Of a DNA stretch of 64,000 nucleotides, positions 1 to 52,745 are shown piece after piece. Below the pieces are notes generated by a model, which ran no database searches, was not told where the DNA came from, and was given only the letters and a program-made list of their open reading frames with translations. The translations under genes and the position numbers were made by a program. Position 1 is the stretch's first letter. Each line of letters begins with the position of its first letter. The DNA is from a virus. The stretch is taken from the IMG/VR virus record IMGVR_UViG_3300033149_006567, positions 1 through 64,000 of that record; one strand, 5' to 3'.

Positions 1-57
1 CAGCAAGTTCAAGATATTTTAATTCGCTCGAACATAGAGCTTAATAGAACAATATGA
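1..57 (+). CDS. C-terminus of an upstream gene (partial)
   Basis: An open frame runs from the first base to a TGA at 55-57 and ends in the residues RSNIELNRTI. Its stop overlaps the ATG of the next small ORF (ATGA), the coupling seen at several other junctions in this window. Only 18 residues are visible, so no function can be given. Confidence 0.4.
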   Translation, partial: QQVQDILIRSNIELNRTI

Positions 58-173
58 TTAGAGTGGTAACCATAGATGATTGCCATCAACTGGCTGCCGT
101 GCGAAATGGCATGGAACTTTGGAACAACGCAGGCACTAAAATAGGAGATATATTGCATGTCGCAATTACCTAA
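54..173 (+). CDS. 39-residue hypothetical ORF
   Basis: The ATG at 54 overlaps the previous stop as ATGA, and the frame ends at TAA 171-173, 17 nt inside the next gene. The product begins MIRVVTIDDC and has no signal peptide, membrane segment or motif I recognise. There is no Shine-Dalgarno sequence, so translation would rely on coupling. It could be a chance ORF; the tight overlap is the only support. Confidence 0.3.
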   Translation: MIRVVTIDDCHQLAAVRNGMELWNNAGTKIGDILHVAIT

Positions 174-3100
174 AAGTTTACATATTTTGCGTCAAATAGA
201 ATCAGATGGAAATTTGGTTTTGGCGCATTTTTATGGTAGTGGGTCGTTTCAGGACTTCTCGGGGAATTCGCATAATAGTACTCCGACGGCTGGTTTATAT
301 TTTAATAGAGATGGTGTTTTATTTACAAGTACAGGTTATAAATTAGATGATGGTGCAGATTTTATAGGAATTGGAGATATTACTGTTTGTATATACTGTA
401 ATCCAAGAAGTATTGGGCAAATTGCTGGCAGATTTATAGAGAATGGAAAATTTATTTTTGGGTTGACGGCAGGAAAAATATTTTGTTCTAGTGATGGATC
501 TACATCTCCGGTATCAGCTGCAATAAATTATAATATTAATAGTTTGTTTTCTGTAACTAGGGCATCTGATGGAATAGCAACAATGTATGTTAATGGAGCG
601 ATTAGCGGAACACCAGATCAATCGACAGGTACTCCTGTTGCAGGCTCTACTAATGTTATAATAGGTAATAGATCTGCTGGAAGTAGGACATTTGATGGTT
701 TGATGTCTGATGTTATTGTAGTAAATGGAATATTATCTCAATCAGAAATAGCACAAATGCACGGCGAAATTCGGTCTTTAAAATGGCCCACAAAAACAAA
801 GAGCAAAGCTAGTATATTTCTTCCGACAGATGCGGATGATTCTTCTTTAGTATTTTCCAGTGACATGGAATTAGTGAATGGAAAAATTGTAGATGCTTCT
901 GATAATGCAAATGGGGCCACCAAGGGCGGCACAAATTTATTTCAAACAAATACGATTTTGAGTAAAGCTTTAAGTTTTAATGAAGCAGAATGGCTGGATT
1001 TAGATACAAATATAGAGATGACTTCTGGAGATTATACTGTTGCAGCATGGGTAAGGCCAAGGGATGTTGCAGCAAAAGGCGGGATCGTAGGAAATTATTG
1101 GTTTATGTATGATACGAATAACAAACTTACGCATTATACGGGTTCGAATTATAGAAATTCAAATAATTCTCTTGTTTGGGGAAAGATGCATCATGTTGTG
1201 CAGACAATAGCCTCAGATGGCTCTTTAAGATATTATATTGACGGAGAATTGGATACAAGTGTGCATGGTGATGCCGATACAAGCATTGTAGCAACGGCAC
1301 TGGGGAATCACGCAGCGGTTGCCCCTTCTCATGCTGCTGACATGGACCTCGTTGATATTAAAATATATTCAGAAGTAAAATCTGCAGAATGGGTGAAGAA
1401 TCAGTATACAAAAGGAGCCAAAGCAGTTCAATTTCAAACATCTTATGGCATCGAGGAGTCTGTTGCGAATGTTACTTCAGGCTCGATAGGCGATTCTGAC
1501 ATTTATGTATCGACGGGTGAATGGCAGATTGTAAATGATTCTATTGGTGGATTAACTACTGGGGTTGATCTTAATTATGATGGAGATATGGAAGATGTAG
1601 GTGTTGACAATTATACTGTTGATAATTCTGCTACATTAACGAAAGAGCCTGGAACGAGAGATGGGGGCTTAGGGACTCAAGTTTTAAGAATTGCGTATAA
1701 TGGCAGTAGTTCTCCTGGCGCTTTTTTAGAGGGTGACGGGGGTTCTCATTTTTTAACTGTTGGTAAAACATATAAAATAACTGGCTGGGCAAGAGGTGAC
1801 GGGACTTTTTATCCAAGACTTATTGGTCCATCTGGAAATTATTTATGGGATGGAACTGCATCTACAGATTGGCAGTATTTTGAGTCTATTGATTTAGCTG
1901 CACGGGATTATATGAGATTTCGCTCTGATTGTACATCTGCTGGTTATGTAGAATTCGATGATGTTTCCGTTCAAGAAGTGGTAAGTAATACGAAAGTCCT
2001 CGAATGCAAATCTGCTGGTATAGCATATATTCCAATTGACAATTTTATGAGTGCCACAGATGCGGCATACGGGGCATGGGAATTTTGGTTGTACAAAACC
2101 AGTGGTGGAAATCCATATGTAATGTTAAATTCAGATACAATAGGCGAATACGATGCTGCTGGCTCCAATTCGTATGTATTTTATGCTTCTGGTTCTGAGC
2201 AGTATGTTTTTGGGAAAACTATAGGGGGGGTATATTCTCATATTACTTATAGTTCTGATGCAGGAGATACACTTTTAGATGCTAATGCATGGAATAAAAT
2301 TACTATATCTAGAAATTCTGCTGGAGTTTTTACTTTATATCATAATAACACATATGCTAAATTAGGAGCGAATCCCTCTACTCAAACGCAATTAATTTCT
2401 GGAAATTATTTGGTGTTAGATTTCGATGTTGGAGATAAAATATCATTAGGTGATAGAAATGGGGATTATGCATTTAAAAAATATTTAGGTACTGTTCAAT
2501 CAGCAGGATATCTTATTTTGGAAAATGATCAATCTACATTAACCCAAACAACAATTTATATTACAGCTACAAATGGGAAAAGTCTAACAATTGGTTGGGG
2601 TGATAATAGTTTTAATAAAGTAACATGCAATGATGTTGAACAAACTTTAACGCACAATTACGCTTCAGAAGGTGCATATAAAATAAAATTGTATGGTGAT
2701 GTAGATGCGATAACAAGTTTTAAGTGTTATAGTCAAGCTTTTATTTCAGGAGATATTGGTAGATTTTCAAAGATGACAAGTTTGGGAGATATTTCTGCTG
2801 TTTCTGGATTAACAAGTTTGACTCGTTTATATCTTAATTCAACTTCTGTTTCTGGAGATATTTCTGCTGTTTCTGGATTAACAAGTTTGACTCGTTTATA
2901 TCTTTATTCAACTTCTGTTTCTGGAGATATTTCTGCTGTTTCTGGATTAACAAGTTTGACTCGTTTATATCTTTATTCAACTTCTGTTTCTGGAGATATT
3001 TCTGCTGTTTCTGGATTAGCAAGTTTGACTTATTTACTTCTTTATTCAGCTTCTGTAGACACTTATACTTCTATAGCGCTTCCGGCTTGGGCTGGTATTA

Positions 3101-3258
3101 ATTTACAAATTCAAGACTTGGGCTTAGATGCGACTGAAGTAGATAATTTTCTTATAGATTTTGAGGATGGAGCAGGTGCAGCAGGAACAACTTCTGCGAG
3201 TGATGCCGCTGTTGCTAGTTTGAGAGGAGCGGGTTGGACAGTGAATGTTAATGAGTAA
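157..3258 (+). CDS. LamG / leucine-rich-repeat adhesin (tail fibre-like)
   Basis: A 1033-residue modular beta protein, probably a virion adhesin that binds glycans or surface protein. Two concanavalin/LamG-like domains lie at about residues 20-200 and 230-420. A jelly-roll carbohydrate-binding-like region follows at about 465-610, a third LamG-like region at about 620-790, a PKD/BspA-like beta module at about 800-870 and four leucine-rich units at 877-968. No signal peptide is visible, consistent with a virion part rather than a secreted protein. The start is supported by AGGAGA upstream. Base composition differs from its neighbours: one 60-base line I counted here (2281-2340) has 16 G+C, while one in the tape-measure region (16921-16980) has 27. 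This suggests recent acquisition. Domain calls rest on pattern recognition, not on a profile search. Confidence 0.7.
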   Translation: MSQLPKSLHILRQIESDGNLVLAHFYGSGSFQDFSGNSHNSTPTAGLYFNRDGVLFTSTGYKLDDGADFIGIGDITVCIYCNPRSIGQIAGRFIENGKFIFGLTAGKIFCSSDGSTSPVSAAINYNINSLFSVTRASDGIATMYVNGAISGTPDQSTGTPVAGSTNVIIGNRSAGSRTFDGLMSDVIVVNGILSQSEIAQMHGEIRSLKWPTKTKSKASIFLPTDADDSSLVFSSDMELVNGKIVDASDNANGATKGGTNLFQTNTILSKALSFNEAEWLDLDTNIEMTSGDYTVAAWVRPRDVAAKGGIVGNYWFMYDTNNKLTHYTGSNYRNSNNSLVWGKMHHVVQTIASDGSLRYYIDGELDTSVHGDADTSIVATALGNHAAVAPSHAADMDLVDIKIYSEVKSAEWVKNQYTKGAKAVQFQTSYGIEESVANVTSGSIGDSDIYVSTGEWQIVNDSIGGLTTGVDLNYDGDMEDVGVDNYTVDNSATLTKEPGTRDGGLGTQVLRIAYNGSSSPGAFLEGDGGSHFLTVGKTYKITGWARGDGTFYPRLIGPSGNYLWDGTASTDWQYFESIDLAARDYMRFRSDCTSAGYVEFDDVSVQEVVSNTKVLECKSAGIAYIPIDNFMSATDAAYGAWEFWLYKTSGGNPYVMLNSDTIGEYDAAGSNSYVFYASGSEQYVFGKTIGGVYSHITYSSDAGDTLLDANAWNKITISRNSAGVFTLYHNNTYAKLGANPSTQTQLISGNYLVLDFDVGDKISLGDRNGDYAFKKYLGTVQSAGYLILENDQSTLTQTTIYITATNGKSLTIGWGDNSFNKVTCNDVEQTLTHNYASEGAYKIKLYGDVDAITSFKCYSQAFISGDIGRFSKMTSLGDISAVSGLTSLTRLYLNSTSVSGDISAVSGLTSLTRLYLYSTSVSGDISAVSGLTSLTRLYLYSTSVSGDISAVSGLASLTYLLLYSASVDTYTSIALPAWAGINLQIQDLGLDATEVDNFLIDFEDGAGAAGTTSASDAAVASLRGAGWTVNVNE
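2785..3060 (+). repeat. Four tandem 69-bp leucine-rich repeat units
   Basis: Units start at 2785, 2854, 2923 and 2992, each encoding 23 residues with the core SGLTSLTRLYL. The first three are almost identical at DNA level; the fourth has diverged. The near identity points to recent copy-number change by slippage or recombination in a receptor-binding region. Confidence 0.9.
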
Positions 3259-3285: not shown

Positions 3286-4266
3286 TTGACTTTACGAAGA
3301 TCACAGGGAGTTGGAGAAACAATTACCCTTAGGGCTTTAATTAAAGATGACCAAGATGATCCTGCTACAACCGCTTCTGGTTTGTCTGTCTCTATTTTCG
3401 GGCCCGATGGAGATTATACTGATCCTACTGATGCGCTAGAGACTGGCACTCCCACTCTTTTCGCTGGGGGTATTTATGAGTATGAGTATTCGATTCCTAG
3501 TGATTCCGAGACTGGAATTTTTCAGGACTATTGGACTGCTGAATTAAATGGGCAAGCCCTTACCGCCCTGTTCTCTTTTGAGGTTTTGGATGCTGGATCA
3601 ATTGAATCTCTCGGAGGACAGCTTAATTATAATAATATAGTTGACGTTACTGTTTCTTCTGGTATTTTGGCGTCTGATGGGGCGGCCTTGGCGGAGGATT
3701 ATTCCTGGACTTTTCTTACTGAAGTATCTCCCTGTTATTCGGATTCTATTAAATTAGAATTAGAAGCGGGTTCTGCGCTTTCTGGTCTGACTGATGACGC
3801 ACTTTACCTAGCCATCCTAGAGGCCAGCATTGAAGCAGATCAATTTAGTTTTAATACCACTGATAGAAATGGCGATTTCTTTTTGCATGCAAGAAGGGAA
3901 TGGGCCACTTGTAAGGCAGCTGCCATTTTAGCAGTCAATATCAAGGGGGGTTTTTATACCCAATCTAAGCGCTTGGGAGATTTATCTGTTACGTATAATC
4001 AAAATGCCCTGAATGAATTATTGGACAGAATAGCCAGCTGTTTGGCTCGCTGGGAGCCTCAATTGATGGCTGGAGGATATGGAACCCAGAATCCGATTGG
4101 CGTGATTAAGGGGGAATATGATCCAGATCGTCCTCAAGTCGGAAGAGTCTGGTTTTCAGATGATGAAGGCAGCTATGTTTCTCGTAAGGTTCCGGCAGCC
4201 AACACGAAGGATCGCACTTATTACAAGCGTCGTTGGCAGCGCGGCTACAAGTCTAGGTGGAAGTAA
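3286..4266 (+). CDS. Head-tail connector/neck protein with Ig-like N-terminus
   Basis: A 326-residue protein that begins at TTG 3286 behind a good Shine-Dalgarno sequence (TAGGAGGG, ending about 10 nt upstream). Residues 1-105 look like a beta-sandwich (GIYEYEYSIPSDSETG, then FSFEVLDAG). The rest is mostly helical with a basic tail (TYYKRRWQRGYKSRWK). It sits just before two further neck-type genes and the tail sheath, so a head-tail joining role is inferred from position and size. I recognise no diagnostic motif. Its stop overlaps the next ATG by one base. It carries the first copy of the CCTAGAGGCC motif (3816-3825). Confidence 0.5.
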   Translation: MTLRRSQGVGETITLRALIKDDQDDPATTASGLSVSIFGPDGDYTDPTDALETGTPTLFAGGIYEYEYSIPSDSETGIFQDYWTAELNGQALTALFSFEVLDAGSIESLGGQLNYNNIVDVTVSSGILASDGAALAEDYSWTFLTEVSPCYSDSIKLELEAGSALSGLTDDALYLAILEASIEADQFSFNTTDRNGDFFLHARREWATCKAAAILAVNIKGGFYTQSKRLGDLSVTYNQNALNELLDRIASCLARWEPQLMAGGYGTQNPIGVIKGEYDPDRPQVGRVWFSDDEGSYVSRKVPAANTKDRTYYKRRWQRGYKSRWK

Positions 4267-5539: not shown

Positions 5540-7465
5540 ATGGCGTATACTAATTTGCCTCAGATTTTAGAGGAAAGACTTGACGGGAATTTGATTACTG
5601 CCGTTGAAAGTGCCGATCCTGTTACCCTTGTTATCGGCACTGCAGGTCAGGGTCCGTCTGAGACGGTATATCCCGTTGAGAGGCCGAGTGACGCAAATAG
5701 CGCCTTTGGAGGAGAGGGAACTCTTACTCGAGGTATGTTTGAAGTTAACACGGCTGGGGCTGAAAGGATTTACCTGTATCGTATTGGCGCCACTGCAGCT
5801 CGGTTGGATTATGTTGGTGGTGGGATTACCATTGAAACGATACAGAAGGATGATGAGGCTGGCGCTGATTATGAGCTCTTTTGGGATCATAGTGCTGGGC
5901 GCTTGCGTGTGTGGAGGACTTCGGACGGGGAATTGGTTTATGATAATAATCCCTCTTATCCGTCTCAAGCTGTGGATGAGGGAGAAGTCTCTGTTACTGG
6001 TTCTGCTACCAGTTTGGGTACCGAAACGGATATCGGTTCTTTAGCAAGTCCTGTAATCCTTGCTGCCGCTGATGGTCTTGGTGGGACTCCTGCGGCTGTT
6101 TATACGGCTGGCACGGATGGACTTAACCTGTCTCGGATGGAGACCTATGAGGCCCTTTACAACGCTTATGAGGATTTAGAGGACCAGGCAGTTGATATCA
6201 TAGTTCCGATGAATGTTTTCCTCGATGACGAAAACATTATGGATAAAACTGAAGCAACTGCTTCTGGTTTGGCGCCTACGGGTAATTCTTACCCGACTGT
6301 TGGTGAAACAGATGACGTTCTTGGCAAACTTTATGTAGAAGAATACGATGGTGAGAATTATTTCTGGTGGTGGTTCCCGACTCAGCCTAATGCTGATGCA
6401 GATACTGATTTCGCGGCTGGTTCTGGGGCTCAGATTTATCCAGCTGGCGTGGGTTTGGCTGATGCTACGCATACTCCTGATGGGACTGAATTGGCTGGGA
6501 GTGATTTCCACGAAGTCAATTTTGCTTATCAGTTGGCTAATTTCTGCTATAATCAGAGTTCGGATATAGTTGAAATGACGGGGGTAATTGGTGTCAAGCC
6601 GCCTGTTTCGTATGCTCCCAGAGAAGTTTCTAGGTGGGTTGGAAAGTTGCCTACCACCGAGATAAATGTCAATACTGGGGTCGAAGTCATTAACATCAAT
6701 GGGTCTGGTTTGCTCGGCAACAAGTTTATGGTTGGCCGTAATGGCTCGGCCGCTGCTTCGGGCATTCCAGGTTTGATCATTGATGGGGTAGATGGCCGTT
6801 ATGGCGGCGGCTTTATTGCTACTGATTCTGGTTTCTTGGATGGGACTCAACAGAAAGACGATAATGATGCTTTAATAGACATTGGTCAATTCATTAGTGT
6901 AGTTTCTGCGTATCCTGTTTTGGCTAATAGTTCGGCTACTAGTGCTTATGTTGCCACCGGTGCCCCTTCTTATGGCGGTTTTTATTCTGCTCTTCCGGCG
7001 AACAGTTCTCCTGCCAATAAGGTTTTACCTTTTGTCCAGTTGCCGTTCCGTTTGAAAATAGCTAAGGTTGATACTTTGGCTGGTGCTGGCTATGTTATGT
7101 TTCACTCGAAACCTAAGGGAATTGTTATTTCTGATGCCCCCACTGCTTCTCGTGCGGAATCTGACTATCGCAGACTTACAACGGTTCGTATCGTCAAGGC
7201 GGTTGTAGATGACATTCGGGCTGTTGCGGATCCATTCATTGGAGGAGAGGGTGGTCTTTCAGATCTTCGTTTGGCAGCTCTCGAGTCCAAAATAGGCGAT
7301 CGTTTGCAACAGAGAGTCAAGGATCTTTTCTTGATTCGTTACGACAAGTCTCTTTCTTCGACTCCGATTCAGCGAGTGCTTGGTCAGGCTGTTCTTGAGC
7401 TGGTTCTCGTTCCTGCTTTTGAGTTCAGGAAGTTGACCGTTGTTGTAAGCTTGGCAGCCATCTAA
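5540..7465 (+). CDS. Contractile tail sheath protein
   Basis: A 641-residue protein that polymerises around the tail tube and contracts on infection. The N-terminus (LPQILEERLDG, then ADPVTLVIGTAGQGP) and the C-terminal domain (RIVKAVVDDIRAVADPFIGG, then LVPAFEFRKLTVVVSLAAI) match the conserved sheath fold. The middle, about residues 110-420, is a larger variable region that probably decorates the tail exterior. The start is fixed by AAGGAGG about 10 nt upstream. The tail tube gene follows after a 55-nt promoter-bearing gap, the usual sheath-tube order. This is the anchor identification for calling the phage a myovirus. Confidence 0.9.
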   Translation: MAYTNLPQILEERLDGNLITAVESADPVTLVIGTAGQGPSETVYPVERPSDANSAFGGEGTLTRGMFEVNTAGAERIYLYRIGATAARLDYVGGGITIETIQKDDEAGADYELFWDHSAGRLRVWRTSDGELVYDNNPSYPSQAVDEGEVSVTGSATSLGTETDIGSLASPVILAAADGLGGTPAAVYTAGTDGLNLSRMETYEALYNAYEDLEDQAVDIIVPMNVFLDDENIMDKTEATASGLAPTGNSYPTVGETDDVLGKLYVEEYDGENYFWWWFPTQPNADADTDFAAGSGAQIYPAGVGLADATHTPDGTELAGSDFHEVNFAYQLANFCYNQSSDIVEMTGVIGVKPPVSYAPREVSRWVGKLPTTEINVNTGVEVININGSGLLGNKFMVGRNGSAAASGIPGLIIDGVDGRYGGGFIATDSGFLDGTQQKDDNDALIDIGQFISVVSAYPVLANSSATSAYVATGAPSYGGFYSALPANSSPANKVLPFVQLPFRLKIAKVDTLAGAGYVMFHSKPKGIVISDAPTASRAESDYRRLTTVRIVKAVVDDIRAVADPFIGGEGGLSDLRLAALESKIGDRLQQRVKDLFLIRYDKSLSSTPIQRVLGQAVLELVLVPAFEFRKLTVVVSLAAI

Positions 7466-7520: not shown

Positions 7521-8180
7521 ATGGCAAGTTCAGCTTTTGCAGGAGCTTATAATTCATTTTCGGGCGTCGATATTAAGGCTGTTTTTAACGAGAAGACTAT
7601 TGCTGAGCTTCAAGCGGTTTCTTATTCGATTACCCGTGAAAAGGGTCCAATTTATACAATGGGTTCGGCAGATCCTCGGAGTTTCTCTCGAGGAAAACGG
7701 GGTATTGCTGGAACTTTAATATTCTTGGTTTTTGATCGTCACGCTTTGCTGGGCGCAATGGGAGCTATGGCCCAGGATACGAGTTCGGTTAACGAATTTT
7801 TGTCGGATATAGATGATTTACGACCTGAATTTTATCCCAGTTCGACTAGAAGTCCGGCTCTTGTTGCTGTTGCAAACGACGTTCGGAATGCTGGTTCTAC
7901 TGTTCATACGCAAGAAAGCGACCTTTTACCAGCTGATATCGCCAGCGATCAAACACCTGCTCTTCCTTGGTATGCCGATCAGATTCTTCCGTTTGATATT
8001 ACTCTTGCTGCGGCCGATGAGTATGGGAGTCTTGCTGTTATGCGGATTTATGGTGTTGAGATTTTAAATGAGGGCTACGGAGTGTCTATTGATGATATTC
8101 AGTCTGCTACTCAGACTACCTATGTGGCTCGGCAGGTTGTTAGCTGGAAGCCCGTTCACAAGAATTTTGGTCTGACATAA
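7521..8180 (+). CDS. Tail tube protein
   Basis: A 219-residue protein directly downstream of the sheath, with a strong ribosome-binding site (AGGAGG, spacing about 10), its own promoter and a strong terminator behind it. These are hallmarks of an abundant structural subunit. The sequence GVDIKAVFNEKTIAEL, then SRGKRGIAGTLIFLVFDRHAL and EYGSLAVMRIYGVEIL, fits the beta-barrel tube fold. The two following genes share GTIIF/FTINF-type strands and the YGSL...IYGVE segment. Of the three this is the shortest and the best isolated transcriptionally, so I call it the major tube subunit. Confidence 0.8.
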   Translation: MASSAFAGAYNSFSGVDIKAVFNEKTIAELQAVSYSITREKGPIYTMGSADPRSFSRGKRGIAGTLIFLVFDRHALLGAMGAMAQDTSSVNEFLSDIDDLRPEFYPSSTRSPALVAVANDVRNAGSTVHTQESDLLPADIASDQTPALPWYADQILPFDITLAAADEYGSLAVMRIYGVEILNEGYGVSIDDIQSATQTTYVARQVVSWKPVHKNFGLT

Positions 8181-8216
8181 ACGAGTGAAACTTTGCTGTT
8201 TTCTAATTTCTAATCC

Positions 8217-8244
8217 AAAAGGGGCGGCTTTGAGCCGCCCCTTT
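8217..8244 (+). terminator. Rho-independent terminator after the tail tube gene
   Basis: A perfect 8-bp GC-only stem (GGGGCGGC at 8221-8228 pairing with GCCGCCCC at 8234-8241) encloses the loop TTTGA. An A-run precedes it and TTT follows, so the stem can extend with A-T pairs. It lies 37 nt after the tube stop and 15 nt before the next start, and would limit read-through into the minor tube-like genes. Confidence 0.9.
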
Positions 8245-8258
8245 CTCCAGGCCCTTAG

Positions 8259-9110
8259 ATGACTTTTGAGGCAACAAGTTCAGGTGGCATAATTAATTTT
8301 TTGGGTTCTAGTTATTCTGGAGCTGATATTAAATTGGCTGTTCATACTTCTTTACCCGTAGTTACCGAAAGATATCGTATCGAATTGGCCGAAAAGTTTT
8401 CGGCAGAAGAAAGACGCCTTAATGAGGAGTGGATGCATATAGCTGAGTATAATGAGCCACTTCGTTCTCAAGAGGAATCTCGAATAATGCGAGAGCGAGA
8501 ACTTAACCAGATGAAGAAAGACGATCTAGAGCGCCACAAGAATCAAGAGTTCCCTGCTTTTCTTCCTCTAGCTTCTGCGCAGTCCTTGTCTGTCCAAGTT
8601 TTTAGGGAGAAAAGACTTGTTAGGGCTTTGGGTCATGTGGCGCCTAAGGGCGTGGTTAGGGGAGCAAGAACTACGGCTGGCACTATTATTTTTACCACGT
8701 TTGACGAACACGCCCTAGCCTCTCTTCTCCATAGGCCTCCCACTATGTTTTCGCATGAGGATGGCCTGGGAATTAGGGCGCTGATTGATCAGTTACCTCC
8801 CATGACTATTACTGCCATATTCGCCAATGAATATGGCAGTTTGTCAGAAATGAATATATATGGGGTTGAGTTTATCGATGATGGACAAGTTCTGTCTATT
8901 GAGGATTTCTTTACTGAGAATACTTGTACTTTTATTGCTCGAGGATACGACGTTCTTTTAAAAAGAGGGAGGGTTGATTTGGTGAAGTCAGTTGTTGGAG
9001 CTTCTGTTGGCAATTCTATGGCACCCCAGTCAGGCAGTTCTCTCTTAGGTAGTTCTGAATATACTAGTTTTAAGGATAGGCTTGGCCTGAGCAGGGACCC
9101 GTATAAATGA
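8259..9110 (+). CDS. Tail tube-like protein with charged helical insertion
   Basis: A 283-residue protein starting ATG 8259 (TTAGATG). It shares the tube pattern YSGADIKLAV at the start and EYGSLSEMNIYGVEFID later with the upstream tube protein. It differs by a highly charged, probably coiled-coil insertion at about residues 38-85 (rich in E, K, R) and a C-terminal extension. It likely forms a minor ring at a tube end or the tube-baseplate junction. Its stop overlaps the next ATG (ATGA). Placement downstream of a terminator suggests lower expression than the major tube subunit. Confidence 0.6.
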   Translation: MTFEATSSGGIINFLGSSYSGADIKLAVHTSLPVVTERYRIELAEKFSAEERRLNEEWMHIAEYNEPLRSQEESRIMRERELNQMKKDDLERHKNQEFPAFLPLASAQSLSVQVFREKRLVRALGHVAPKGVVRGARTTAGTIIFTTFDEHALASLLHRPPTMFSHEDGLGIRALIDQLPPMTITAIFANEYGSLSEMNIYGVEFIDDGQVLSIEDFFTENTCTFIARGYDVLLKRGRVDLVKSVVGASVGNSMAPQSGSSLLGSSEYTSFKDRLGLSRDPYK

Positions 9111-9853
9111 CTCGCAATGTCTCATTGGCTAGAGAGGCCAACTTAGTTTACGACCAGGAATACTACAGTTCGTCTCAGGCTTGCATTTATTTCGGTGATA
9201 TCTGGATAGACGAAATCACTGGGATTCAGTATCAGATAGAGCATTCTAAGACTCCTATTTATGGATATGCTTCGACCCTTTATGATGCCATGGTTAGGGG
9301 TCCCCTTTTGGTTAGGGGTAGTTTTACCATTAATTTCAAAGAAGCTGGCTATTTATTTGTTGTTCTGAATGAGTATAAGAAACGTATGGGGCAGGGGAAT
9401 ACCCATCCCTATCAACGTGACGACAAGAACGGGACCTACGCTATTCAGCGGGCTAATATTGAGCGGCTAATGCAGAAAGACATAGACAACGTAGATTTGA
9501 ATAAATATCATCAAGATATAGCCGGGTTTGTGAGTGAGGCTCAAAGCCGAGGTAATCCTAAGGGCCTGGATACCGCAGAGAATATGTTTGAGGCTTTCGA
9601 GGATGTTGTGTGGGGGAAAAGGGGCGCCCAGGACAAGCTCAATGAGGCGGGCTATGTTGGGCGGCGCGTAGATGACCATAGACTGAATGGATTTGACATT
9701 TTTGTTCAATTTGGTGACTTTTCCAATGAACTTGCTAATCATACTATGCGTAAAATAGTGGATGTTCACATAGTGGGGGACAGTATGGTTATCGGAGGAG
9801 ACTCTGAGCCTCTTCAAGAGTCCTATGTTTTTTATGCCAAGAACGTTATCTAG
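9107..9853 (+). CDS. Tail tube-like / tube initiator protein
   Basis: A 248-residue protein overlapping the previous stop by 4 nt. The N-terminal half (ACIYFGDIWIDEITGIQYQI, then GPLLVRGSFTINFKEAGYLF) resembles the tube fold, and the C-terminal half (DIFVQFGDFSNELANHTMRK, then VDVHIVGDSMVI) completes it around a helical insertion at about residues 90-195. It is the third tube-family member in a row. A role as tube initiator or terminal ring is inferred from family and order. Confidence 0.5.
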   Translation: MTRNVSLAREANLVYDQEYYSSSQACIYFGDIWIDEITGIQYQIEHSKTPIYGYASTLYDAMVRGPLLVRGSFTINFKEAGYLFVVLNEYKKRMGQGNTHPYQRDDKNGTYAIQRANIERLMQKDIDNVDLNKYHQDIAGFVSEAQSRGNPKGLDTAENMFEAFEDVVWGKRGAQDKLNEAGYVGRRVDDHRLNGFDIFVQFGDFSNELANHTMRKIVDVHIVGDSMVIGGDSEPLQESYVFYAKNVI

Positions 9854-18300: not shown

Positions 18301-19760
18301 GGATGTTTTGGAGGCATCCCTTTACCACAGAATATTCTGCCATGCCATTGAGATTTCGGAGAATAGCTGGGGCCGGAAAAGAGGCCCTTGCCTTAATGCC
18401 GGAAATCAATGTGAACATCATGGGAAAGACGGTATCTATTAGTGCCCTAGTGGCCGCTATGGGAGACAAGGATAAGGATACTGCAGGCTTTATGATACTC
18501 GGGGGGGATCTAGAAAAAAAAGCAAGGGATTTCTGGTTTAGAAAGGGAAACATTGAGACTCAGCGCTACTTAGACCAAGTGGTTAAGACGCAGTTACTAA
18601 AACCTCAGGCTGCTAGTGCAGTTGCTGAAATGGAAGCTTTGACTGCCAAGCAGTTATCTGAAATTGCTATTGAAAAGCTTAGCATGCCTAGCCAATATGT
18701 TGGGAGAACGTCTCTCGCTTTGACCAAAATGAAAAGGGCGCTGACTTATATGCCCGAAGGGTACATGAGAGAGCAGGCCGGTTTATTGACAGCCTTAATG
18801 GAGCAGGGGCCAATAGCAGGAAAGCATATACCGGCGGAAGAGCTGGCCGGGAATATACGAGCTTTTGAGGCTTCTTTTCAGGGACTGGAGAGTGCCATTC
18901 TTGGAGGTAGGGGCCGAGATATAGAATACTATTTTAAGGAAACGTTAGGGGCTACTCAAGAATCTCGTATGGTTAGGGATATATTGACTCAAGGAGTTCA
19001 ACTTACAGAGGAGAAAGCTAAGGAGCTATCTAGATTGATGGGGCCAGGAGTGGAAATTTCTCCTCGACTTGGTGGCACGCAATTACAAGAGACTGCGGAT
19101 TTTATGGCCGAAGCTATGCGTCGCTATGCTGGCACAGAAGAAGCTCGGATGTTTGATTTGTTAACGGGTCGAGGGGATGTGAGGGCAGCCAATGATATGA
19201 GGAAATATTTGCAGAGGAGCAATATCGAAGCCGCGAAGCAAGGCATCAATAAGTTGCGAAGTGGTTTCGGCAAGGTAGTTAGTAAAATAAAATTGGCAGC
19301 AGAAAACATAGTCGGGGCTGAAGGCGGGAAATTATTGAAGTATGCGAAACCGTTAGCCATCGGGACTGGAGCAACGATGCTTTTGGCCGCCGTTCTTAGT
19401 CGCCCCTCGGAAACTCTCGGGCCATCAGGTGATAGAATCCCAGGGGATCGCTCTCGGTCAGTTCCTCGCCGAGGAAGAGGGTCGTATAGAACTCCAGAGA
19501 ATCTTCATCCACCTTCTCAGGTGTTGGGTAGTCCAACTGCTCCTACTAGGCTGACGGTTCCATCTGCTCGAATTACATCGGAAAAGGGTTATAATATAAA
19601 TGCGCGGATTGCGATGGAGCAAGAAAATGTAGACCCAGTTAGATTAGCGCAAGAACTAGAACGTGGCGCTGGCAATACCGACAGGGTAAATGTTAATATC
19701 AGTGATAACCGAGCAACTTTAAACATGGATCAATTGCTTAACGAGCTTTATAATGGCTGA
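15297..19760 (+). CDS. Giant tail protein 2 (tape-measure candidate)
   Basis: A 1487-residue protein from GTG 15297, overlapping the previous gene by 11 nt. Mostly helical, with hydrophobic segments at the N-terminus (DVLIGAPLAAGLGMSAW) and near residue 1360 (KPLAIGTGATMLLAAVLS). A proline/arginine-rich linker follows. The tail (TDRVNVNISDNRATLNMDQL) has the same VN-rich strand seen at the end of the preceding giant protein. Size and hydrophobic segments fit a tape measure. Whether this protein, its neighbour or both act as ruler cannot be told from sequence. It overlaps the hub gene start by 8 nt. Confidence 0.55.
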   Translation: MASDPKKIEREFTFKDVLIGAPLAAGLGMSAWRFAKEVPTAFSQTVRSGFGEDFLRQVAPYASSVAGTDAAINNLVRSASSVREPAEAVFAWKAAASAIPDPFGKAISPEGLTEPFASIGSVFREHLPRFSPSYRLKFMRLFQTNLKAIQKQKSVAGVDFDLAKLAPAEIAPVTPESYLRAPLRGPEDLPVHLKTYGQRIQNTLGDVGMEWVSRPEWQGAGLGAYRMRLGPGLSLNIPKSVGGQALLGQNLASQYAVGDFTVFDEATRKVTRMPYDEYTLYRFEKEILPRLRPGAENAFASTREAQAAIDALGRELREKGTFLGATPPMFQTRAAQGYGTLRSRVTHLVTSKGKTITAPEALRIPELRALVGPELRAAGVSPSSMAKGTLSRYSAQNLFLGGAAAPESRRLEQAFREWEFFKGDLPAREAERFSWLLSPEYKRLYGERGALLHRTVFAKPEEMSRLAEKAPSLIMRAGEGEWEVSKALMDYMKSVRSSHMEVHRLTTEMAENFMEKGGVGYAKRAVSLPAGMVIGYGPSGEMVNLSRKSTLLGYGRVGENLKLYFTEMAPEEIHKQMFGAKGGVVPRRRGVFSIMSEVMRLPQGAEARMSVGMLKKNPHYHTMQMTSALWDILGAKQAAGLPVGGLEDFISRPAETVRFLERRATMGGKYSHRAFTKSLLGMAQAGGLSAEEFGRVFGGVPEVFGEGWEASLGGGLSGAERRAMEELSPVGTVFSTYAGMLEQRIPSGGGATIEPRLFTLLEAGQYGEFGSKISAEIARRAALDNPEALLVSEEVRRSLASFVGQAESSWAQDVFKLQSRFSREAFEGFLEKGGWLEMPGKTGNIYVPGMDKVRQMLPHELPGGEQAFTEFAKTYSRLARAASDVEAGRLPLEEFLGAEGVYEGAMRAIQREHAPFGKGLFGLARKGTQRVAGSRFLELASTIGASEAAENAFLKTATPFDVGLSDYWFEKMIQDSERQGVMEAAETAAVRARWESGEAVGGMFWRHPFTTEYSAMPLRFRRIAGAGKEALALMPEINVNIMGKTVSISALVAAMGDKDKDTAGFMILGGDLEKKARDFWFRKGNIETQRYLDQVVKTQLLKPQAASAVAEMEALTAKQLSEIAIEKLSMPSQYVGRTSLALTKMKRALTYMPEGYMREQAGLLTALMEQGPIAGKHIPAEELAGNIRAFEASFQGLESAILGGRGRDIEYYFKETLGATQESRMVRDILTQGVQLTEEKAKELSRLMGPGVEISPRLGGTQLQETADFMAEAMRRYAGTEEARMFDLLTGRGDVRAANDMRKYLQRSNIEAAKQGINKLRSGFGKVVSKIKLAAENIVGAEGGKLLKYAKPLAIGTGATMLLAAVLSRPSETLGPSGDRIPGDRSRSVPRRGRGSYRTPENLHPPSQVLGSPTAPTRLTVPSARITSEKGYNINARIAMEQENVDPVRLAQELERGAGNTDRVNVNISDNRATLNMDQLLNELYNG

Positions 19761-22700
19761 TGGCGGAAATTTTATAATTAATGACATAGAGCTGACGATA
19801 CCCCCTCAGCAGATAAAGATAGACCACCAGTCCTTTAATCATCGCTGGCAGACTCTCCGGACTCGAGGCTCTAAGAAGGTCAAGTCAGGGTATTCTATTG
19901 TAAATATCAGAGTTCGCGCCACTTTTGTTGATCATTCTGATTTTGAAAAACTAAGGAAACTGGTGGCTCAACTTAGGGTCACTCCATTTGCTTATGTGGA
20001 AAACCAGCATATTCGCAATGCCGTTCTAGAAGGCTCCCAGGAAGAGAATCTGGTTTTAGCTTTAAAGTCGATCAATATTCGTAAGCCAGCCAGGACTGTC
20101 AATTCCATAAATGTTGTGTTTGATTTTGCCTGGTTCAATTATAAGCCCTATACTTTGCTTTGGCAGTATCGAGTTGATATATTTAGTAATTTGGCGACTA
20201 ATGATCCCAAGTACTCTTATGCCTGGAAGATGATGTATGAGGCTGAGATTAAGAAGGGAGGCTATATCCCGATTAAGCCCCCCGGAGCTTCTGGAGAAGA
20301 GCTTTCAGATAGTTTGATGATCGGATTTAGAGAGTTTATTTCTCCCCTGATGGAGGGGGATGACTCCAAGAGTATTACCCCAGAAGATGCTATTAAAAAA
20401 TATTTTGAACTGCAAGGGAAAATAAAAAGTCAGGCTGAAAAAAGTCTTAGGGGACACGGAGCTTCTGAGTTTCCACAGCCCGTAGAGACTACTGGGGACT
20501 ACGTGGCAGAAGCCAAAAACTTATTGGGGTACTCTACCTCTATGGAGCTGGATTTATTTTCAGAAATACAGGGAGAGATAGGAGGGAAGAAGTTTACCTA
20601 CAAGGGGTTGGATTGGGAGCCCCTATACAAAGACGATAAGCCTCTCACCAAGGATGGCCGCGCAATATTTAGCCGCAGGACAGCCCTAGATGCCAAAAGA
20701 TCTGATATAACGGTGACTGGGGTAGACATATCCTTTCAGCATAATTTAGCTATGATGCCAGTTCTGGGATATTCTCATGCTACTTTTCAGCATACAGGTA
20801 GTGTGGATTCTGTTGTTTCTCTTCAGATGATAGCTAGAAGTGAAGAGGCGGTCAAAAGAATTACTCATTTTTACAATGCAGTTAAAAATGCGGAAATAAA
20901 ATACAAGTCGATTCCTGCTGGTAGTCGCAATTTGTATGTTAGCAATGACATACTGAATCTTTGCGGAATTCAAGAGTGCATAGTCGAACAGTTTTTTATT
21001 GACACAATACCAGGTCAGATAGGGACTTATTCAATTAGTTTGGTTTTGTCAGAAAATAGTTATCCAGATTTAGGAGAGAAATTTGTTTCAGAGTTTGCTT
21101 TTTCTTCAAAATGGCTGAGGAGCGAGATAGCTAAGATTTTAGAGGGGTATGTCAAATTGGCCCCGGGATTTAAAGAAAAGTATGTTTTCGGCAAGAAGTT
21201 TTCAACGCGGCGAGTGGAATCTTTTGAGAATAGAGTGTATGAGACTACAATACTTTCGTCGGATGAAAGTAAAAAGAAGCTGTATGATGCGACCAAGCAG
21301 TACGCAGAATTGATGAGTGGGTTGTATAACGAGCTAGAGGAATTATTGGGCGAAGGGAAGGGGGTACTTGGGGAGTATGGAGATTCAGCGCTTGGATATC
21401 AGTTGGCGAGCTTTTTATCTCTTCGAGATGAAGGAGTTTTTCCGGGGATACATAAAATACAAAGTGATTTAATGGATAACGTAGTCCTCAATAAGACCAA
21501 GAACGCCAGTCGTGCTGGAAAAGAGAACACTGGGATATCGGATACTTTGGGGGCTTTAGGCGGGGACTACGACGCTGTAACTCGCCCTTCTGCTACGGGG
21601 GCGACGGAGGGTAGTTTTGGAAATGCCCTGAACAGCTTGGGTCAAAAGAGTGCGCAGATACACGCTCTTTATCGAGGAAGTTCTGGAGAGTTTACAGACG
21701 AGGAAAGACGGCAAAAAGACGCTTTGACCCAGGAGTATGAGTGGGCCTTGAACGTCCTAAGGAGGTCTTCTAGGGAGTACGTGAGTAATCGTCATTTGGA
21801 AAGTAAAGAAGAGTATCAGCGGCTTTTAAGTCAGTATAAAAATAATGAGGATGTTATCTCCCAAGGGCTAAGTGGGGCCGCCCTGAAGGCTTACTGGGAG
21901 GAGTTCAGGACTGTTAGCGCAAGGCGTTTGGCAGAAAAGCGCTTGGGGCAAAGGGGTCTGCAAGATCTCATATTCGACATAGTAAGAGATTATATGGGGC
22001 AATATGTTTCTCTTTTGGATCGATTAATTAATCCCGGGGAGATATTGAAGGAAAGGGAGTTTTTAGACATAGCCAAGCAGGTTAAGGAGTCTCTTCTGAA
22101 AAATGTGGGGTCAGAATGCTATCCAGATTTTCCCTTAAGAGAGGTTGCAGAGGCCCTGCAGGTTGAAAAGGGCGACATCAATTATGAGTTGGGAGAGCTA
22201 CTCTTTTCAGAATGGAAAGATAAGGGCGACTACATGAAGGGTTTAAGTCCAGCCTGTTTGATTAATCCGGATTTTTATCTTATCAGCGAGACTTTTGATA
22301 AGGCTGGGAATTTGGTTGATGAAGCTTCTATCAAAAAGGTCAAAGAAATATCCAAAAGTAGTTTGAGCAATTATGAACAAGCGCATAAAAAATGGCTTGG
22401 TAGAGTTGAAGAGAATTATCAAAAACGGACACAGGCAATGAATTCTTATAGTCGGAATTCATTTCAAAGTTTGACGAAAAAGGACAAAGAACGGGTAAAT
22501 AAGGGGAAGGCGAGTGCTTTCGGGGGTGAAGCAGTAAGAAGCTATATGAAACAACAGTCAGATTACATGGATCCCTACGATTTTCCCGAAGGGGGTTATG
22601 CGTATGACACCCCCACAGCCTTAGCTCTCGAAGGCGCAAATCCTGTTGAATTTTCGACCATTGATGCTGGCGTTGATGTTGCACTAGGTCAAGAAGATAT

Positions 22701-25683
22701 GAATGACTATTGGATGTGCTACGGGCGGGAATCTGTTTATTTAGAGGAGCCAGAGGTCAAAAAAGAAGAGCGCATTAGACATATATATGGGGGATACGAG
22801 ATACTGGATGGGACGAAACCCAGTGTGTGGGGGAAGCGAGAGGATATAAGAGCAGGTTCGCAGGGAGCGCCGGATAAATGGATTTGGCCCGTTCCGTCTT
22901 TTGGTAGAGGTCCCAACAATATATCGAGTTATTATGGAGAGAGATGGGATCCCGTGGAGGAAGAAAAAGGGGAATACGTTAAGGCATTTCATTATGGAAT
23001 TGACATAGTAAATGGGATAAGCGGCAAGTCTTCTAGGGGGGCGACAGTTGTTGCCGCAGCCCCAGGCAGGGTTGTTTTTGCAAAAGGAGGCCGAGAGAGA
23101 AAAAGGAATGTCGATAACGAGTATGTAGAGGGAGATAAGGGAGAAACGAGTCAAATACTTATTCAGCATGGTGGAGGGTTTTATACCAGGTACAAGCATG
23201 TAACAGGATATGAAAAGTGGCTAGACCCCAATTCTCCCTCTTATTTTCGCAAAAAGCCCTTTGTTAAGGGTGGAGAGGAAATAGCAAAAGTTGGGAATGA
23301 GGGCTATTCTACTGGAGCCCATTTACATTTCGAAACACTTGCAGGAGGGAAAGAGACTAAAAGTTATGCCAAAGATCCATTACTAGTTTTGGCAGGAGAC
23401 TACAACGTTTCTGCCCCAATAACCGTTGGAGAAAATGCTGAGGCGGAGGATTTACTGGCTCGTTTTATCGGAGAGTTTGAAAGAGACTTATATCTAGGGC
23501 AGGGCAAAGGGGTGATGCGGGCATATCCCACTTTTAAACTTTATTTTATAGAAAGTGATTTCGGGGAACGAAAAGAGTATTCTTTTGACGATTTCTTTTC
23601 TTATTCCTCGGTTAAAAATATACAGCTGGTTAAGCATAAGCATATACCCGCAGACGTGTGCATATTGGAGTTGACGAATATATCTGGGGTATTAAGTAAC
23701 CGGAAGTTTCGGAACGCCCTAGATGACCAAACTGACAGGATAGTCAGTCAAGTAAGGCCCATTAGCAAAGAAGACGCAAAGTCTCCCGAGAGGACAAATA
23801 CGAAAGAGGAGAATCCGCTAGTATCGATGTTACTGCAGGCGGGAGTTCAAGTGCAGCTTAGGCTAGGGTATAACAATAACCCTCAATTTTTAGAAACACC
23901 GTTTAATGGTGTGATAACAGAAGTTCAGTTTACTGAATCTGATGATTTAGTCCGAGTTGTGGCCCAAAGCTATGGCACTCAATTAGTTCAAAGGTTTAAG
24001 GGAATAGATAAAAGTATAAAAAGGGGCGGGCTTTTTAGTACGTCTGGAGACACGGGTTCGCTATTGGAAGAGCTACTTGGTTCTACAGAGGTTACTCATT
24101 TCGGTCGATGGGAGCCGGGGTCAAAGGGCCAGGATGAGCTTTATAATACCCTCACCAATAGGTGGGAGTTTAACCCTAAACCTCATGCCTTAAATATATT
24201 TGCGCCAGGGGGGGATTTCTTTTTTAACTTATTTAAATCTGCTCCAAATTACTATATGTTTCGGACTACCATTTGGGATGTAGCACAAGAGATGACATTG
24301 AGGCATCCCGGGTATATTTGCCAAGCTGTTCCTTACGAGGGAGAGTGGGGACCTCGGATGACTCTTTATTTCGGACTTCCCAATCAGCTTTATTACAGTA
24401 GAGACCCGAATCCTCAGGAAAAGGAGTTCGCTAGTGTTCTTGGAAGTTTAGCGGAGAAGATAGAAAAGAATAAAGAACTAGATGATAGCGGAGAGCAGCT
24501 TGCCAAAACATTGAAGGATTCGGCCTCCTCTATAAATCCAGAGAAATTTAATGAGCAGGTGGAGAAGACCGCCAGAGATAATTACAGCAAGAAGAGTAGA
24601 AGTCAGCATTTTGATAAGCTTAAGAAGATTTTTGCGAGGAGCACAGGCTTGAATAAGCCATTTAGGGCTTATCATTTGGTTACAAGCGAGTCACATATAA
24701 TAGCCAACAATATTTGGCCCGTAGCTCCCAGACGACTTTATAACGCGGTGAATCTTCAATACAGTGACGACACCATATTTTTCGACGAAGTTGAAGACGG
24801 CAAGACCGGAAAACTGGAGTCTAGTGACCCCGAAGTGCTTTCTATGAAGGCGGATGTTGATATACCGGACGAAGACATAAGAGAGTTTTTCGCTAGATAT
24901 CCGAATTGCATAGGAGAAGAGCAGGCCAAAAGATATGCCCTAGGACTTCTTTGGGAAGCTCAGAAGAAAGCGTACCAGGGGAACCTGATTGTGATAGGGA
25001 ATCCAAGAATTAAGCCTTATGATGTTGTAATAATTGCAGATAGCTACACTGACATGTATGGCATGGTGGAAGTAGAGCAGGTTGTTCACAAGTTTTCTCA
25101 GGAAAATGGTTTTGTTACGGAAATAAAACCCAATATGTTAATTCATGTAAATCAGACCGCGACTATGACGACAGACGAGGTTATGGGTATGGTGGCGGCT
25201 GAGGTTTTGGGGAAACTTGACATGGATACCGCTTCCAGACTTTTAACGCAAGGGGTTCAGCTTAGTCGGGAGGCCGATAAATCGGTCAGCGGGAAAATAG
25301 CAAAGGCGATTACGGATAACTCAGAGGCTGTAGCGCTATCTACAATGGCGATCAGTATGCCTGCTGGGCTTGCGATACATAGCTGTCTTTGGTTATTCAG
25401 GAAATTTATGGCGCATTCTCAGTTTAATCACCCCTTTAGGTACGAGCCATTAATTTATCGAGGACAACCGATGCTTCAAGGGTTAAAGGCTAGATATAGT
25501 CAAAAAGGATTTTTCTGGTTAAAGGGAGAGTTTATCGAAGAAGGCCTCGAGGGGCTTAAAAATAAATACGAAAATCTTAAGGAGCAGTTTGCTCCAGAAA
25601 ATTGGTTTGATACTCGAGGAGATTTCGGAGATTATTTCTGGGGTATCAAACAGGGCTATGCCGGGCCTAAGTTGGGAGAATAA
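19753..25683 (+). CDS. Baseplate hub fused to an M23 (LytM-type) endopeptidase
   Basis: A 1976-residue multidomain protein. The N-terminal 450 residues contain two tail-associated beta domains (starting FIINDIELTIPPQQIKI). A helical region spans about 450-1000. A complete M23 zinc metallopeptidase domain lies at about 1042-1216 with H1080-x3-D1084 (FHYGIDIV) and H1190-L-H1192 (GAHLHFE), the zinc ligands and catalytic histidine of the family. It should cut peptidoglycan cross-bridges during DNA entry. Residues about 1250-1850 resemble the gp27/gpD hub fold (FNGVITEVQFTESDDLVRVV). The start ATG overlaps the upstream gene. Hub identity rests on order: tape measure before, spike, gp25-like and gpJ-like after. 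Confidence 0.8.
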   Translation: MADGGNFIINDIELTIPPQQIKIDHQSFNHRWQTLRTRGSKKVKSGYSIVNIRVRATFVDHSDFEKLRKLVAQLRVTPFAYVENQHIRNAVLEGSQEENLVLALKSINIRKPARTVNSINVVFDFAWFNYKPYTLLWQYRVDIFSNLATNDPKYSYAWKMMYEAEIKKGGYIPIKPPGASGEELSDSLMIGFREFISPLMEGDDSKSITPEDAIKKYFELQGKIKSQAEKSLRGHGASEFPQPVETTGDYVAEAKNLLGYSTSMELDLFSEIQGEIGGKKFTYKGLDWEPLYKDDKPLTKDGRAIFSRRTALDAKRSDITVTGVDISFQHNLAMMPVLGYSHATFQHTGSVDSVVSLQMIARSEEAVKRITHFYNAVKNAEIKYKSIPAGSRNLYVSNDILNLCGIQECIVEQFFIDTIPGQIGTYSISLVLSENSYPDLGEKFVSEFAFSSKWLRSEIAKILEGYVKLAPGFKEKYVFGKKFSTRRVESFENRVYETTILSSDESKKKLYDATKQYAELMSGLYNELEELLGEGKGVLGEYGDSALGYQLASFLSLRDEGVFPGIHKIQSDLMDNVVLNKTKNASRAGKENTGISDTLGALGGDYDAVTRPSATGATEGSFGNALNSLGQKSAQIHALYRGSSGEFTDEERRQKDALTQEYEWALNVLRRSSREYVSNRHLESKEEYQRLLSQYKNNEDVISQGLSGAALKAYWEEFRTVSARRLAEKRLGQRGLQDLIFDIVRDYMGQYVSLLDRLINPGEILKEREFLDIAKQVKESLLKNVGSECYPDFPLREVAEALQVEKGDINYELGELLFSEWKDKGDYMKGLSPACLINPDFYLISETFDKAGNLVDEASIKKVKEISKSSLSNYEQAHKKWLGRVEENYQKRTQAMNSYSRNSFQSLTKKDKERVNKGKASAFGGEAVRSYMKQQSDYMDPYDFPEGGYAYDTPTALALEGANPVEFSTIDAGVDVALGQEDMNDYWMCYGRESVYLEEPEVKKEERIRHIYGGYEILDGTKPSVWGKREDIRAGSQGAPDKWIWPVPSFGRGPNNISSYYGERWDPVEEEKGEYVKAFHYGIDIVNGISGKSSRGATVVAAAPGRVVFAKGGRERKRNVDNEYVEGDKGETSQILIQHGGGFYTRYKHVTGYEKWLDPNSPSYFRKKPFVKGGEEIAKVGNEGYSTGAHLHFETLAGGKETKSYAKDPLLVLAGDYNVSAPITVGENAEAEDLLARFIGEFERDLYLGQGKGVMRAYPTFKLYFIESDFGERKEYSFDDFFSYSSVKNIQLVKHKHIPADVCILELTNISGVLSNRKFRNALDDQTDRIVSQVRPISKEDAKSPERTNTKEENPLVSMLLQAGVQVQLRLGYNNNPQFLETPFNGVITEVQFTESDDLVRVVAQSYGTQLVQRFKGIDKSIKRGGLFSTSGDTGSLLEELLGSTEVTHFGRWEPGSKGQDELYNTLTNRWEFNPKPHALNIFAPGGDFFFNLFKSAPNYYMFRTTIWDVAQEMTLRHPGYICQAVPYEGEWGPRMTLYFGLPNQLYYSRDPNPQEKEFASVLGSLAEKIEKNKELDDSGEQLAKTLKDSASSINPEKFNEQVEKTARDNYSKKSRSQHFDKLKKIFARSTGLNKPFRAYHLVTSESHIIANNIWPVAPRRLYNAVNLQYSDDTIFFDEVEDGKTGKLESSDPEVLSMKADVDIPDEDIREFFARYPNCIGEEQAKRYALGLLWEAQKKAYQGNLIVIGNPRIKPYDVVIIADSYTDMYGMVEVEQVVHKFSQENGFVTEIKPNMLIHVNQTATMTTDEVMGMVAAEVLGKLDMDTASRLLTQGVQLSREADKSVSGKIAKAITDNSEAVALSTMAISMPAGLAIHSCLWLFRKFMAHSQFNHPFRYEPLIYRGQPMLQGLKARYSQKGFFWLKGEFIEEGLEGLKNKYENLKEQFAPENWFDTRGDFGDYFWGIKQGYAGPKLGE

Positions 25684-39510: not shown

Positions 39511-39959
39511 TGATGCGCGTGAATGGTTGGATTAAAAGATTCGTGGATGGTTCCTGGGAAGAGGGGAAAGACAAGGAAGTATTAGCCGGAAGAGCTAGCT
39601 GGTCTAGGGGTCGCCTAGAGGGCATGCTGAGGGCAGAGGTTCATCACGGAAGATATTTTCTGGGAATTTGTGGTCCTGGAGAATATTGGCAGTCAGATGA
39701 TTTTTCTGTAAATCTTTCTTCAGGAGAGACGCAGTTAGAGACGAGGAGGCTGCAGAGGAAGATAGTGCTTCCCGACACTAACATGGTAGTGCAGAGAAAA
39801 GAAAGCGAGTTGCTTGTGTTTGTGTATACGGGTTCTCCTCCGTACATGCCAGGAGAGTTTCTTTGTGTGAGCCCAGAGATGTTGGGAAAATGGCTGACGC
39901 TTGAATTAAACTTGAAGGACGACTCTCTCCAGATGAACATTTTGCCGGAGCGGATATAG
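39510..39959 (+). CDS. Hypothetical small virion protein
   Basis: A 149-residue protein. The start at ATG 39510 overlaps the upstream stop by one base; a second ATG follows directly. Basic N-terminus (MMRVNGWIKRF), then beta strands. The stop TAG overlaps the next GTG. The tight spacing makes this part of the fibre operon. No family is recognised. It carries a near copy of the recurrent motif (CCTAGAGGGC, 39614-39623). Confidence 0.45.
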   Translation: MMRVNGWIKRFVDGSWEEGKDKEVLAGRASWSRGRLEGMLRAEVHHGRYFLGICGPGEYWQSDDFSVNLSSGETQLETRRLQRKIVLPDTNMVVQRKESELLVFVYTGSPPYMPGEFLCVSPEMLGKWLTLELNLKDDSLQMNILPERI

Positions 39960-44821: not shown

Positions 44822-44822
44822 G

Positions 44823-52732: not shown

Positions 52733-52745
52733 CCCGAGTCCCCAG

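What the first reader, a model, noticed from the sequence alone, without database searches (positions are those of the whole stretch)
157..3258. AT-rich adhesin with expanding leucine-rich repeats
This gene is clearly poorer in GC than its neighbours and has three nearly identical 69-bp units, so copy number probably varies between isolates. It resembles cell-surface adhesins more than typical phage fibres, pointing to transfer and to a fast-evolving receptor or glycan binder.
Basis: partly seen in the sequence, partly recalled or inferred. Interest (0 to 1): 0.5.

Follow-up and report, generated by a model that had tools for sequence, protein, structure and literature searches.

The report
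Phage adhesin with internalin-like repeat tip
A large tailed phage carries an AT-rich, probably acquired, multi-domain surface protein that ends in near-identical leucine-rich repeats; the same kind of repeat cassette occurs on other environmental phage contigs, with amino-acid change concentrated on its predicted binding face.

Summary
ORF 157-3258 (1033 aa) has the lowest GC (0.365) and GC3 (0.204) of 87 ORFs in its 97.8-kb phage record. Near its end lie four 69-bp units at 2785-3060: units 2 and 3 identical, unit 1 one base different, unit 4 diverged. The gene lies in a myophage virion block, in a variable slot before a conserved gene and the tail sheath; of 34 sheath-relative loci, one has a related protein there and none has the repeats. 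It joins LamG, CBM-like and PKD-like segments to an internalin-type LRR. A strict motif pattern found this 23-residue cassette in 16 viral stretches, but in only one real bacterial stretch of 2 matched. Within arrays, amino-acid change concentrates on four concave-face positions (pN/pS 1.72 against 0.40). Nine further, more diverged arrays repeat the concentration but not a ratio above 1. Varying copy number was not seen in four groups of near-identical contigs. A retroelement hypermutator was tested and not found. Best reading: an acquired virion adhesin with a diversifying LRR tip.

The parts
157..3258 (+). Adhesin CDS in the virion gene block, 1033 aa, GC 0.365, GC3 0.204
143..147 (+). AGGAG, ribosome-binding-like site 9 nt before the ATG
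   Evidence: sequence, read by eye
340..753 (+). LamG (Laminin_G_3) domain, aa 62-199
   Evidence: Pfam best stretch
829..1401 (+). Second LamG domain, about aa 225-415; bounds by eye (Pfam reports 2 stretches and prints only the best)
1561..1980 (+). Segment aa 469-608, 40% identical to aa 283-415 of the slot protein of L006; the label CBM-like is by eye
   Evidence: blastp
2527..2724 (+). Beta-sandwich segment, aa 791-856, matches phrog_14220 (unknown function); the label PKD-like is by eye, Pfam gives no PKD match
2716..2784 (+). Degenerate first turn before the array
   Evidence: by eye
2785..3060 (+). LRR array: units 2785-2853, 2854-2922, 2923-2991, 2992-3060, 23 residues each
3061..3255 (+). 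C-terminal cap; two helices in the model at low to moderate confidence; alignable in part with caps of other viral cassettes
3286..4266 (+). Conserved neighbour, relative found in 34 of 34 sheath-relative loci; marks the slot
5540..7465 (+). Tail sheath (phrog_16991, E 1.3e-75)

Best explanation
The gene encodes a protein carried on the phage particle that binds a glycan or protein on cells or in the surroundings. Shown: its place in the virion gene block, its LamG and LRR domains, its deviant composition, and the concentration of amino-acid change on the predicted concave face across the cassette family. Inferred: that it sits on the virion; that the N-terminal lectin-like domains bind glycan or form a stalk; that the C-terminal LRR solenoid is the exposed recognition tip; that whole-unit duplication, point change on the concave face and exchange of the cassette between phages alter what is bound.
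For: Slot before a gene conserved in 34 of 34 relative loci, two virion structural genes and the sheath; in L004 a major head protein lies upstream of the slot. L006 has a related LamG protein in the same slot, which also matches phrog_5939 'tail' and proteins named tail fibre or structural in annotated phages. Internalin-type LRR by sequence and fold (InlB-type chains 37% identity, rmsd 2.0 over 91-92 columns). Composition outlier; no cassette match in 34 relative loci. Cassettes of other contigs lie on stretches with structural genes: 7 of 10 chosen neighbour proteins match head, packaging or tail families, and further portal, protease and sheath matches occur among 36 chosen neighbours. Change concentrates on unit positions 14, 16, 18, 19: only 2 of 8855 four-position sets reach the observed pN (this one included), 14 of 15 informative arrays, pN/pS 1.72 with bootstrap 1.08-4.19; face pN above the rest in 9 of 9 further arrays.
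Against: No proof of virion location. The gene is the first full one on the contig, so most of the upstream context is missing. The window model is moderate (pLDDT 66.9) and its PDB matches have low TM-scores, 0.30-0.38 of the query. The tail match of the L006 protein (best stretch aa 432-773) does not fall on the parts shared with this protein (aa 283-415, 940-1185). In the more diverged arrays face pN/pS is 0.94, and bacterial LRRs also vary more on the face (0.80 against 0.45), so diversifying selection rests on the younger arrays. The face positions were named after seeing the units, though they fit the LRR convention (recalled). Only two of the window's four units entered the count, and these are identical.
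Confidence: 0.6

Rival explanations
1. It is a head or neck fibre (capsid decoration adhesin) that holds the particle to a matrix or to surface glycan, not the receptor-binding tip of the tail.
For: In L004 a major head protein lies upstream of the slot and the sheath lies downstream; the slot protein of L005 has a weak Phage_cement_2 match below the curated cut-off (E 5.3e-4); the baseplate matches lie elsewhere, at 26.4-28.1 kb.
Against: The L006 slot protein matches phrog_5939 'tail' (E 7.3e-69) and proteins named tail fibre, though not in the parts shared with this protein.
Confidence: 0.3
2. The low GC3 reflects translation selection on an abundant virion protein, not transfer.
For: Sheath and some head genes also have shifted codon use with many T-ending codons; the codon deviation of this gene correlates 0.44-0.46 with that of two other ORFs of the record, 11501 and 48105.
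Against: Correlation with the sheath is only 0.16, and this gene is rich in A as well as T at third positions, unlike the sheath; its GC3 is far below every other ORF.
Confidence: 0.1
3. A diversity-generating retroelement or like hypermutator rewrites concave-face codons (AAY to NNY).
For: In the first set (17 arrays: window, 15 other viral, one bacterial MAG) four-fold codons end in C or T at 85 of 97 face places against 402 of 838 elsewhere, higher on the face in 14 of 16 arrays. Bacterial LRR control: 44 of 85 against 400 of 799.
Against: No reverse transcriptase in 0 of 17 and 0 of 16 viral records; no exact template-like pattern in 17 viral records; no C/T bias in nine further arrays (30 of 53 against 232 of 397); the window's own array is one of the two that go the other way; third bases are not significantly more constant on the face (17 of 64 against 109 of 304 variable, p 0.19); A-containing codons for D2, I3 and T20 are nearly invariant.
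Confidence: 0.05
4. Assembly chimera: the AT-rich gene at the contig start was wrongly joined to the phage.
For: The gene starts 156 bp from the contig end and differs in composition.
Against: L006 has a related LamG protein in the same slot directly before the same conserved gene.
Confidence: 0.05

Closest known systems
Listeria internalins (InlA, InlB), LRR domain
   Same: LxxLxLxx strands and a DIS-type turn; top matches in the PDB by sequence and by fold
   Different: 23-residue units here against 22 (recalled); lectin-like N-terminus; helical cap where internalins have an Ig-like domain (recalled); in a phage virion block
Phage proteins with PKD or LRR names in BFVD, e.g. A0A6J5NQL4 (PKD, uncultured Caudovirales phage) and LRR proteins of Siphoviridae contigs
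   Same: Fold matches to the type-B cassette model, best E 6.1e-9
   Different: 17% identity and rmsd 13.8 for the best; sequences not read here; the window model was not searched in BFVD
BspA-family (DUF285) LRR proteins of large phages: Vibrio phage pir03 (PMC7765460, one passage seen), Klebsiella N1M2 and Aeromonas D3
   Same: LRR surface-type protein in a large phage
   Different: No DUF285 match in Pfam for this protein; fold E 2.8e-3 and 4.1e-3 for the type-B model
Tail-module LRR-like protein of Vibrio phage P. lipares (PMC10945359, passages seen)
   Same: Reported as the most diverse protein between strains that differ in host susceptibility
   Different: LRR assignment had 10% HHpred probability; sequence not compared here
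DGR variable proteins (e.g. Bordetella phage Mtd)
   Same: Phage binding tip with variation focused on a binding site
   Different: C-type lectin fold in annotated targets (PMC8144416, passages seen); here LRR and no reverse transcriptase found
Lamprey variable lymphocyte receptors
   Same: LRR fold for variable recognition (PMC5006420, one passage seen); variable concave face (recalled)
   Different: No assembly mechanism seen here; likeness of principle only

Membership tests
Phage virion adhesin / receptor-binding protein | Gene in the virion structural block | tested here: met
Phage virion adhesin / receptor-binding protein | Protein on the particle and binding a receptor | not testable with these tools
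   needs proteomics and binding assays
Leucine-rich repeat proteins | LxxLxLxx repeats forming a solenoid | tested here: met
   Pfam LRR_4 over cut-off, PDB by sequence, model and fold search
Internalins | 22-residue LRR units (recalled) | tested here: not met
   units are 69 bp, 23 residues
Internalins | Signal peptide, and wall anchor in InlA-type members (recalled) | tested here: inconclusive
   none seen by eye in the sequence; no predictor was run
BspA-like / DUF285 | DUF285 match in Pfam | tested here: not met
   one search lists only Laminin_G_3, LRR_4 and LRR_8 at E 0.001
DGR target protein | Reverse transcriptase in the same record | tested here: not met
   none in G000; 0 of 17 viral records and 0 of 16; records may be fragments
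DGR target protein | Template repeat with AAY codons | tested here: not met
   one exact pattern, absent in 17 of 17 viral records; no mismatches allowed
DGR target protein | Adenine-directed substitution (NNY codons) | tested here: inconclusive
   bias in the first set, none in nine further arrays

The most novel reading that the evidence does not exclude
Environmental phages share a mobile LRR tip cassette that works like a phage counterpart of lamprey variable lymphocyte receptors: whole 69-bp units are duplicated and their concave-face codons are changed by a targeted process (an unseen retroelement, or one acting in trans), while the scaffold stays fixed.
Probability: 0.06. Interest if true: 0.85.

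Novelty: new variant of a known kind. Interest (0 to 1): 0.45.

Why it matters
LRR recognition tips are well known in bacteria, plants and lampreys (recalled); the open-licence papers found here say little of them in phages. This cassette occurs on viral contigs of quite different base composition, beside several kinds of structural genes, with a nearly fixed scaffold and amino-acid change concentrated on the expected binding face. If the inference is right, it is a natural modular binder in which repeat growth and selection on a binding face can be tested directly with long reads and binding assays.

Tried and rejected
DGR: looked likely from the NNY codons but is not supported by the reverse-transcriptase search, the template search or the replication set. 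A simpler reading of the codon bias, not simulated here, is that young arrays descend from C/T-ending two-fold codons. The reverse-transcriptase search did not include the records of L055 (near-copy of L044), L074, L084, L085, L089 and L108 (near-copies of L071) or L102.

Copy-number change: four groups of near-identical contigs (6, 2, 2 and 2) show no change of array length. The group of six carries short, diverged arrays; L081/L086 are identical over 7468 bp and so tell little. No close relative of this phage was found.

One AT-rich source for all cassettes: unit GC3 follows the GC of its own locus (r 0.62, 16 arrays), so low GC belongs to this gene rather than to the cassette.

Homologues in annotated phages: none by tblastn with the whole protein, its N-terminus and two viral cassettes; for the LRR part one chance-level hit at E 3. 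BLAST's low-complexity filter weakens the window query, but in a local test the two viral cassettes stayed easily detectable. Bacterial genomes: the first scan matched 57 stretches, none a relative. The search for related loci with the whole protein and with its first 781 aa gave no viral relative.

Wasted or wrong: pattern too strict; spacing 51 in place of 49; pattern mis-spelt; one search printed a useless list, redone.

Full report
What is there. ORF 157-3258 starts 9 nt after an AGGAG, and its open frame is only 4 codons longer than the ORF. It is the least GC-rich of 87 ORFs in the 97,842-bp record and has the strongest codon deviation of 33 ORFs of 300 aa or more. Pfam gives Laminin_G_3 (two stretches) and LRR_4. 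The last quarter holds a beta-sandwich segment, a degenerate first turn, four 23-residue LRR units and a cap. Units 2 and 3 are identical over 69 bp. Unit 1 differs by one base, which changes residue 18 (N/Y). Unit 4 differs from them at residues 10, 14, 16, 20 and 23, plus one silent change. Three of these six residue changes (14, 16, 18) lie on the face positions named below.

Where it lies. The window begins a record of a large myophage. Downstream come a conserved gene of unknown family, two virion structural genes, the sheath and three proteins of a head-protein family, a very large protein with endolysin and peptidase matches and baseplate genes, and further virion proteins. The sheath is distantly like those of Acinetobacter phage ME3, Moorella phage MTATph1 and Bacillus phage KLEB27-3. 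A sheath query gave 34 IMG/VR loci. All 34 have a relative of the 3286 gene; only L006 has a relative of this protein, in the same slot. In L007 and L008 the held stretch begins within 210 bp of the 3286 relative, so their slot is not seen. Elsewhere the slot holds small genes or other large proteins, such as 1294 aa in L005 and 1021 aa in L032. tblastn with 17 cassettes at E 1e-3 found none in the 34 loci.

The cassette family. A related-loci scan gave 5 viral relatives of the LRR part. A strict tandem pattern gave 16 viral stretches, 4 of them on contigs already seen, and 16 of 16 encode the repeat. The same pattern in genome contigs gave 2 stretches: L059 is not an LRR; L060, at the edge of a contig of a Bacteroidales MAG, is. 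A looser pattern gave 61 stretches; of the 45 loci L068-L112, 23 passed a unit filter and 22 did not; one of the 23 (L100) repeats L038. By eye there are two flavours, A (LTSLTxLYLxSTSVSGDI, the window's) and B (SGWVLPxSLxxFYVxSTSVSGDI). Pfam finds no LRR in the two type-B proteins scanned, L050 and L054. The type-B model (pLDDT 77.7) is a sandwich, a solenoid of short strands and a cap with two helices; it has no PDB match at E 0.001, the best being a plant LRR ectodomain at 1.3e-3, and its best viral match is a PKD-named phage protein at E 6.1e-9. The window model (pLDDT 66.9) matches internalins, best E 2.2e-5, with low TM-scores. N-terminal partners differ by eye: LamG in the window, an LRR-type start in L044, L047 and L049, 'GLTD' repeats in L050 and L054, a probable signal peptide in L048 and L060. 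Of 10 neighbour proteins that I chose, 7 match head, packaging or tail families; among 36 more, portal, protease and sheath families appear.

Bacterial relatives. 52 of 296 genomes of the phylum of G017 match the L047 cassette at E 1e-10. The six loci read (L113-L118) carry GxIP-type repeats, another LRR kind; the other 46 genomes were not read. In these collections the TSVSGDI cassette is thus an LRR subfamily met mainly on viral contigs.

Selection on the face. The first set has 17 arrays with 67 units (window, 15 other viral, one MAG). L058, with one unit, was dropped from pair counts, and the extraction took only 2 of the window's 4 units, both identical. On 16 arrays, 66 units and 127 pairs, positions 14, 16, 18, 19 have pN 0.411 and pS 0.239 (ratio 1.72); the rest have 0.112 and 0.283 (0.40). 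Only 2 of 8855 four-position sets reach that pN, this one included; face pN exceeds the rest in 14 of 15 informative arrays; the bootstrap of the ratio is 1.08-4.19. In nine further arrays (two units or more; the duplicates L086 and L100 and one stray unit of L098 dropped) the face is higher in 9 of 9, but the ratio is 0.94 against 0.56. Bacterial LRRs (71 units in six loci) give 0.80 against 0.45. Greater change on the face is thus general to LRRs; a ratio above 1 is seen only in the younger arrays.

Codon pattern. In the first set four-fold codons on the face end in C or T at 85 of 97 places against 402 of 838 elsewhere, and in 14 of 16 arrays; the window's array is one of the two exceptions. 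This resembles retroelement mutagenesis, but no reverse transcriptase (33 viral records) or template pattern (17 viral records) was found, and the bias is absent in the nine further arrays. It stays partly unexplained.

Literature. Nine full-text searches listed no paper that, by title and abstract, describes this cassette; several lists were cut (for example 25 of 333). Passages only were read of PMC10945359, PMC11476376, PMC8144416, PMC5006420 and PMC7765460. The library holds open-licence papers only.

Noticed in passing
window 54-173: A 39-codon ORF (ATG at 54, directly at the end of the preceding frame) overlaps the adhesin start by 17 nt; no blastp match among ORFs of 60 aa or more in the 34 relatives, a set that would miss short homologues.
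   Followed up: partly
window 7521-9853: Three adjacent genes (7521, 8259, 9107) match phrog_9206, named major head protein: a likely tandem paralogue set.
   Followed up: no
window 19753-25683: 1976-aa protein with endolysin and peptidase matches and weak tape-measure matches.
   Followed up: no
window 39959-47036: Three adjacent virion proteins match phrog_19683, two of them weakly.
   Followed up: no
window 52662-56292: Two genes match glycosyltransferase phrog_2170; the second also matches thymidylate synthase phrog_85.
   Followed up: no
L050 2768-6244 and L054 547-4929: LRR cassette embedded in long proteins made of many 'GLTD' repeats (by eye).
   Followed up: no
L044 and L055: Two contigs of 4648 and 4734 bp carry the same LRR protein; their 42 differences over 3810 bp all lie at 1523-2202 of L044, outside the LRR ORF.
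   Followed up: partly
L038, L040, L045, L046, L049, L052, L056, L060: The LRR ORF runs off the held stretch; in L040, L045, L052, L056 and L060 that is the contig end, as expected if assembly breaks in or near the repeats.
   Followed up: no
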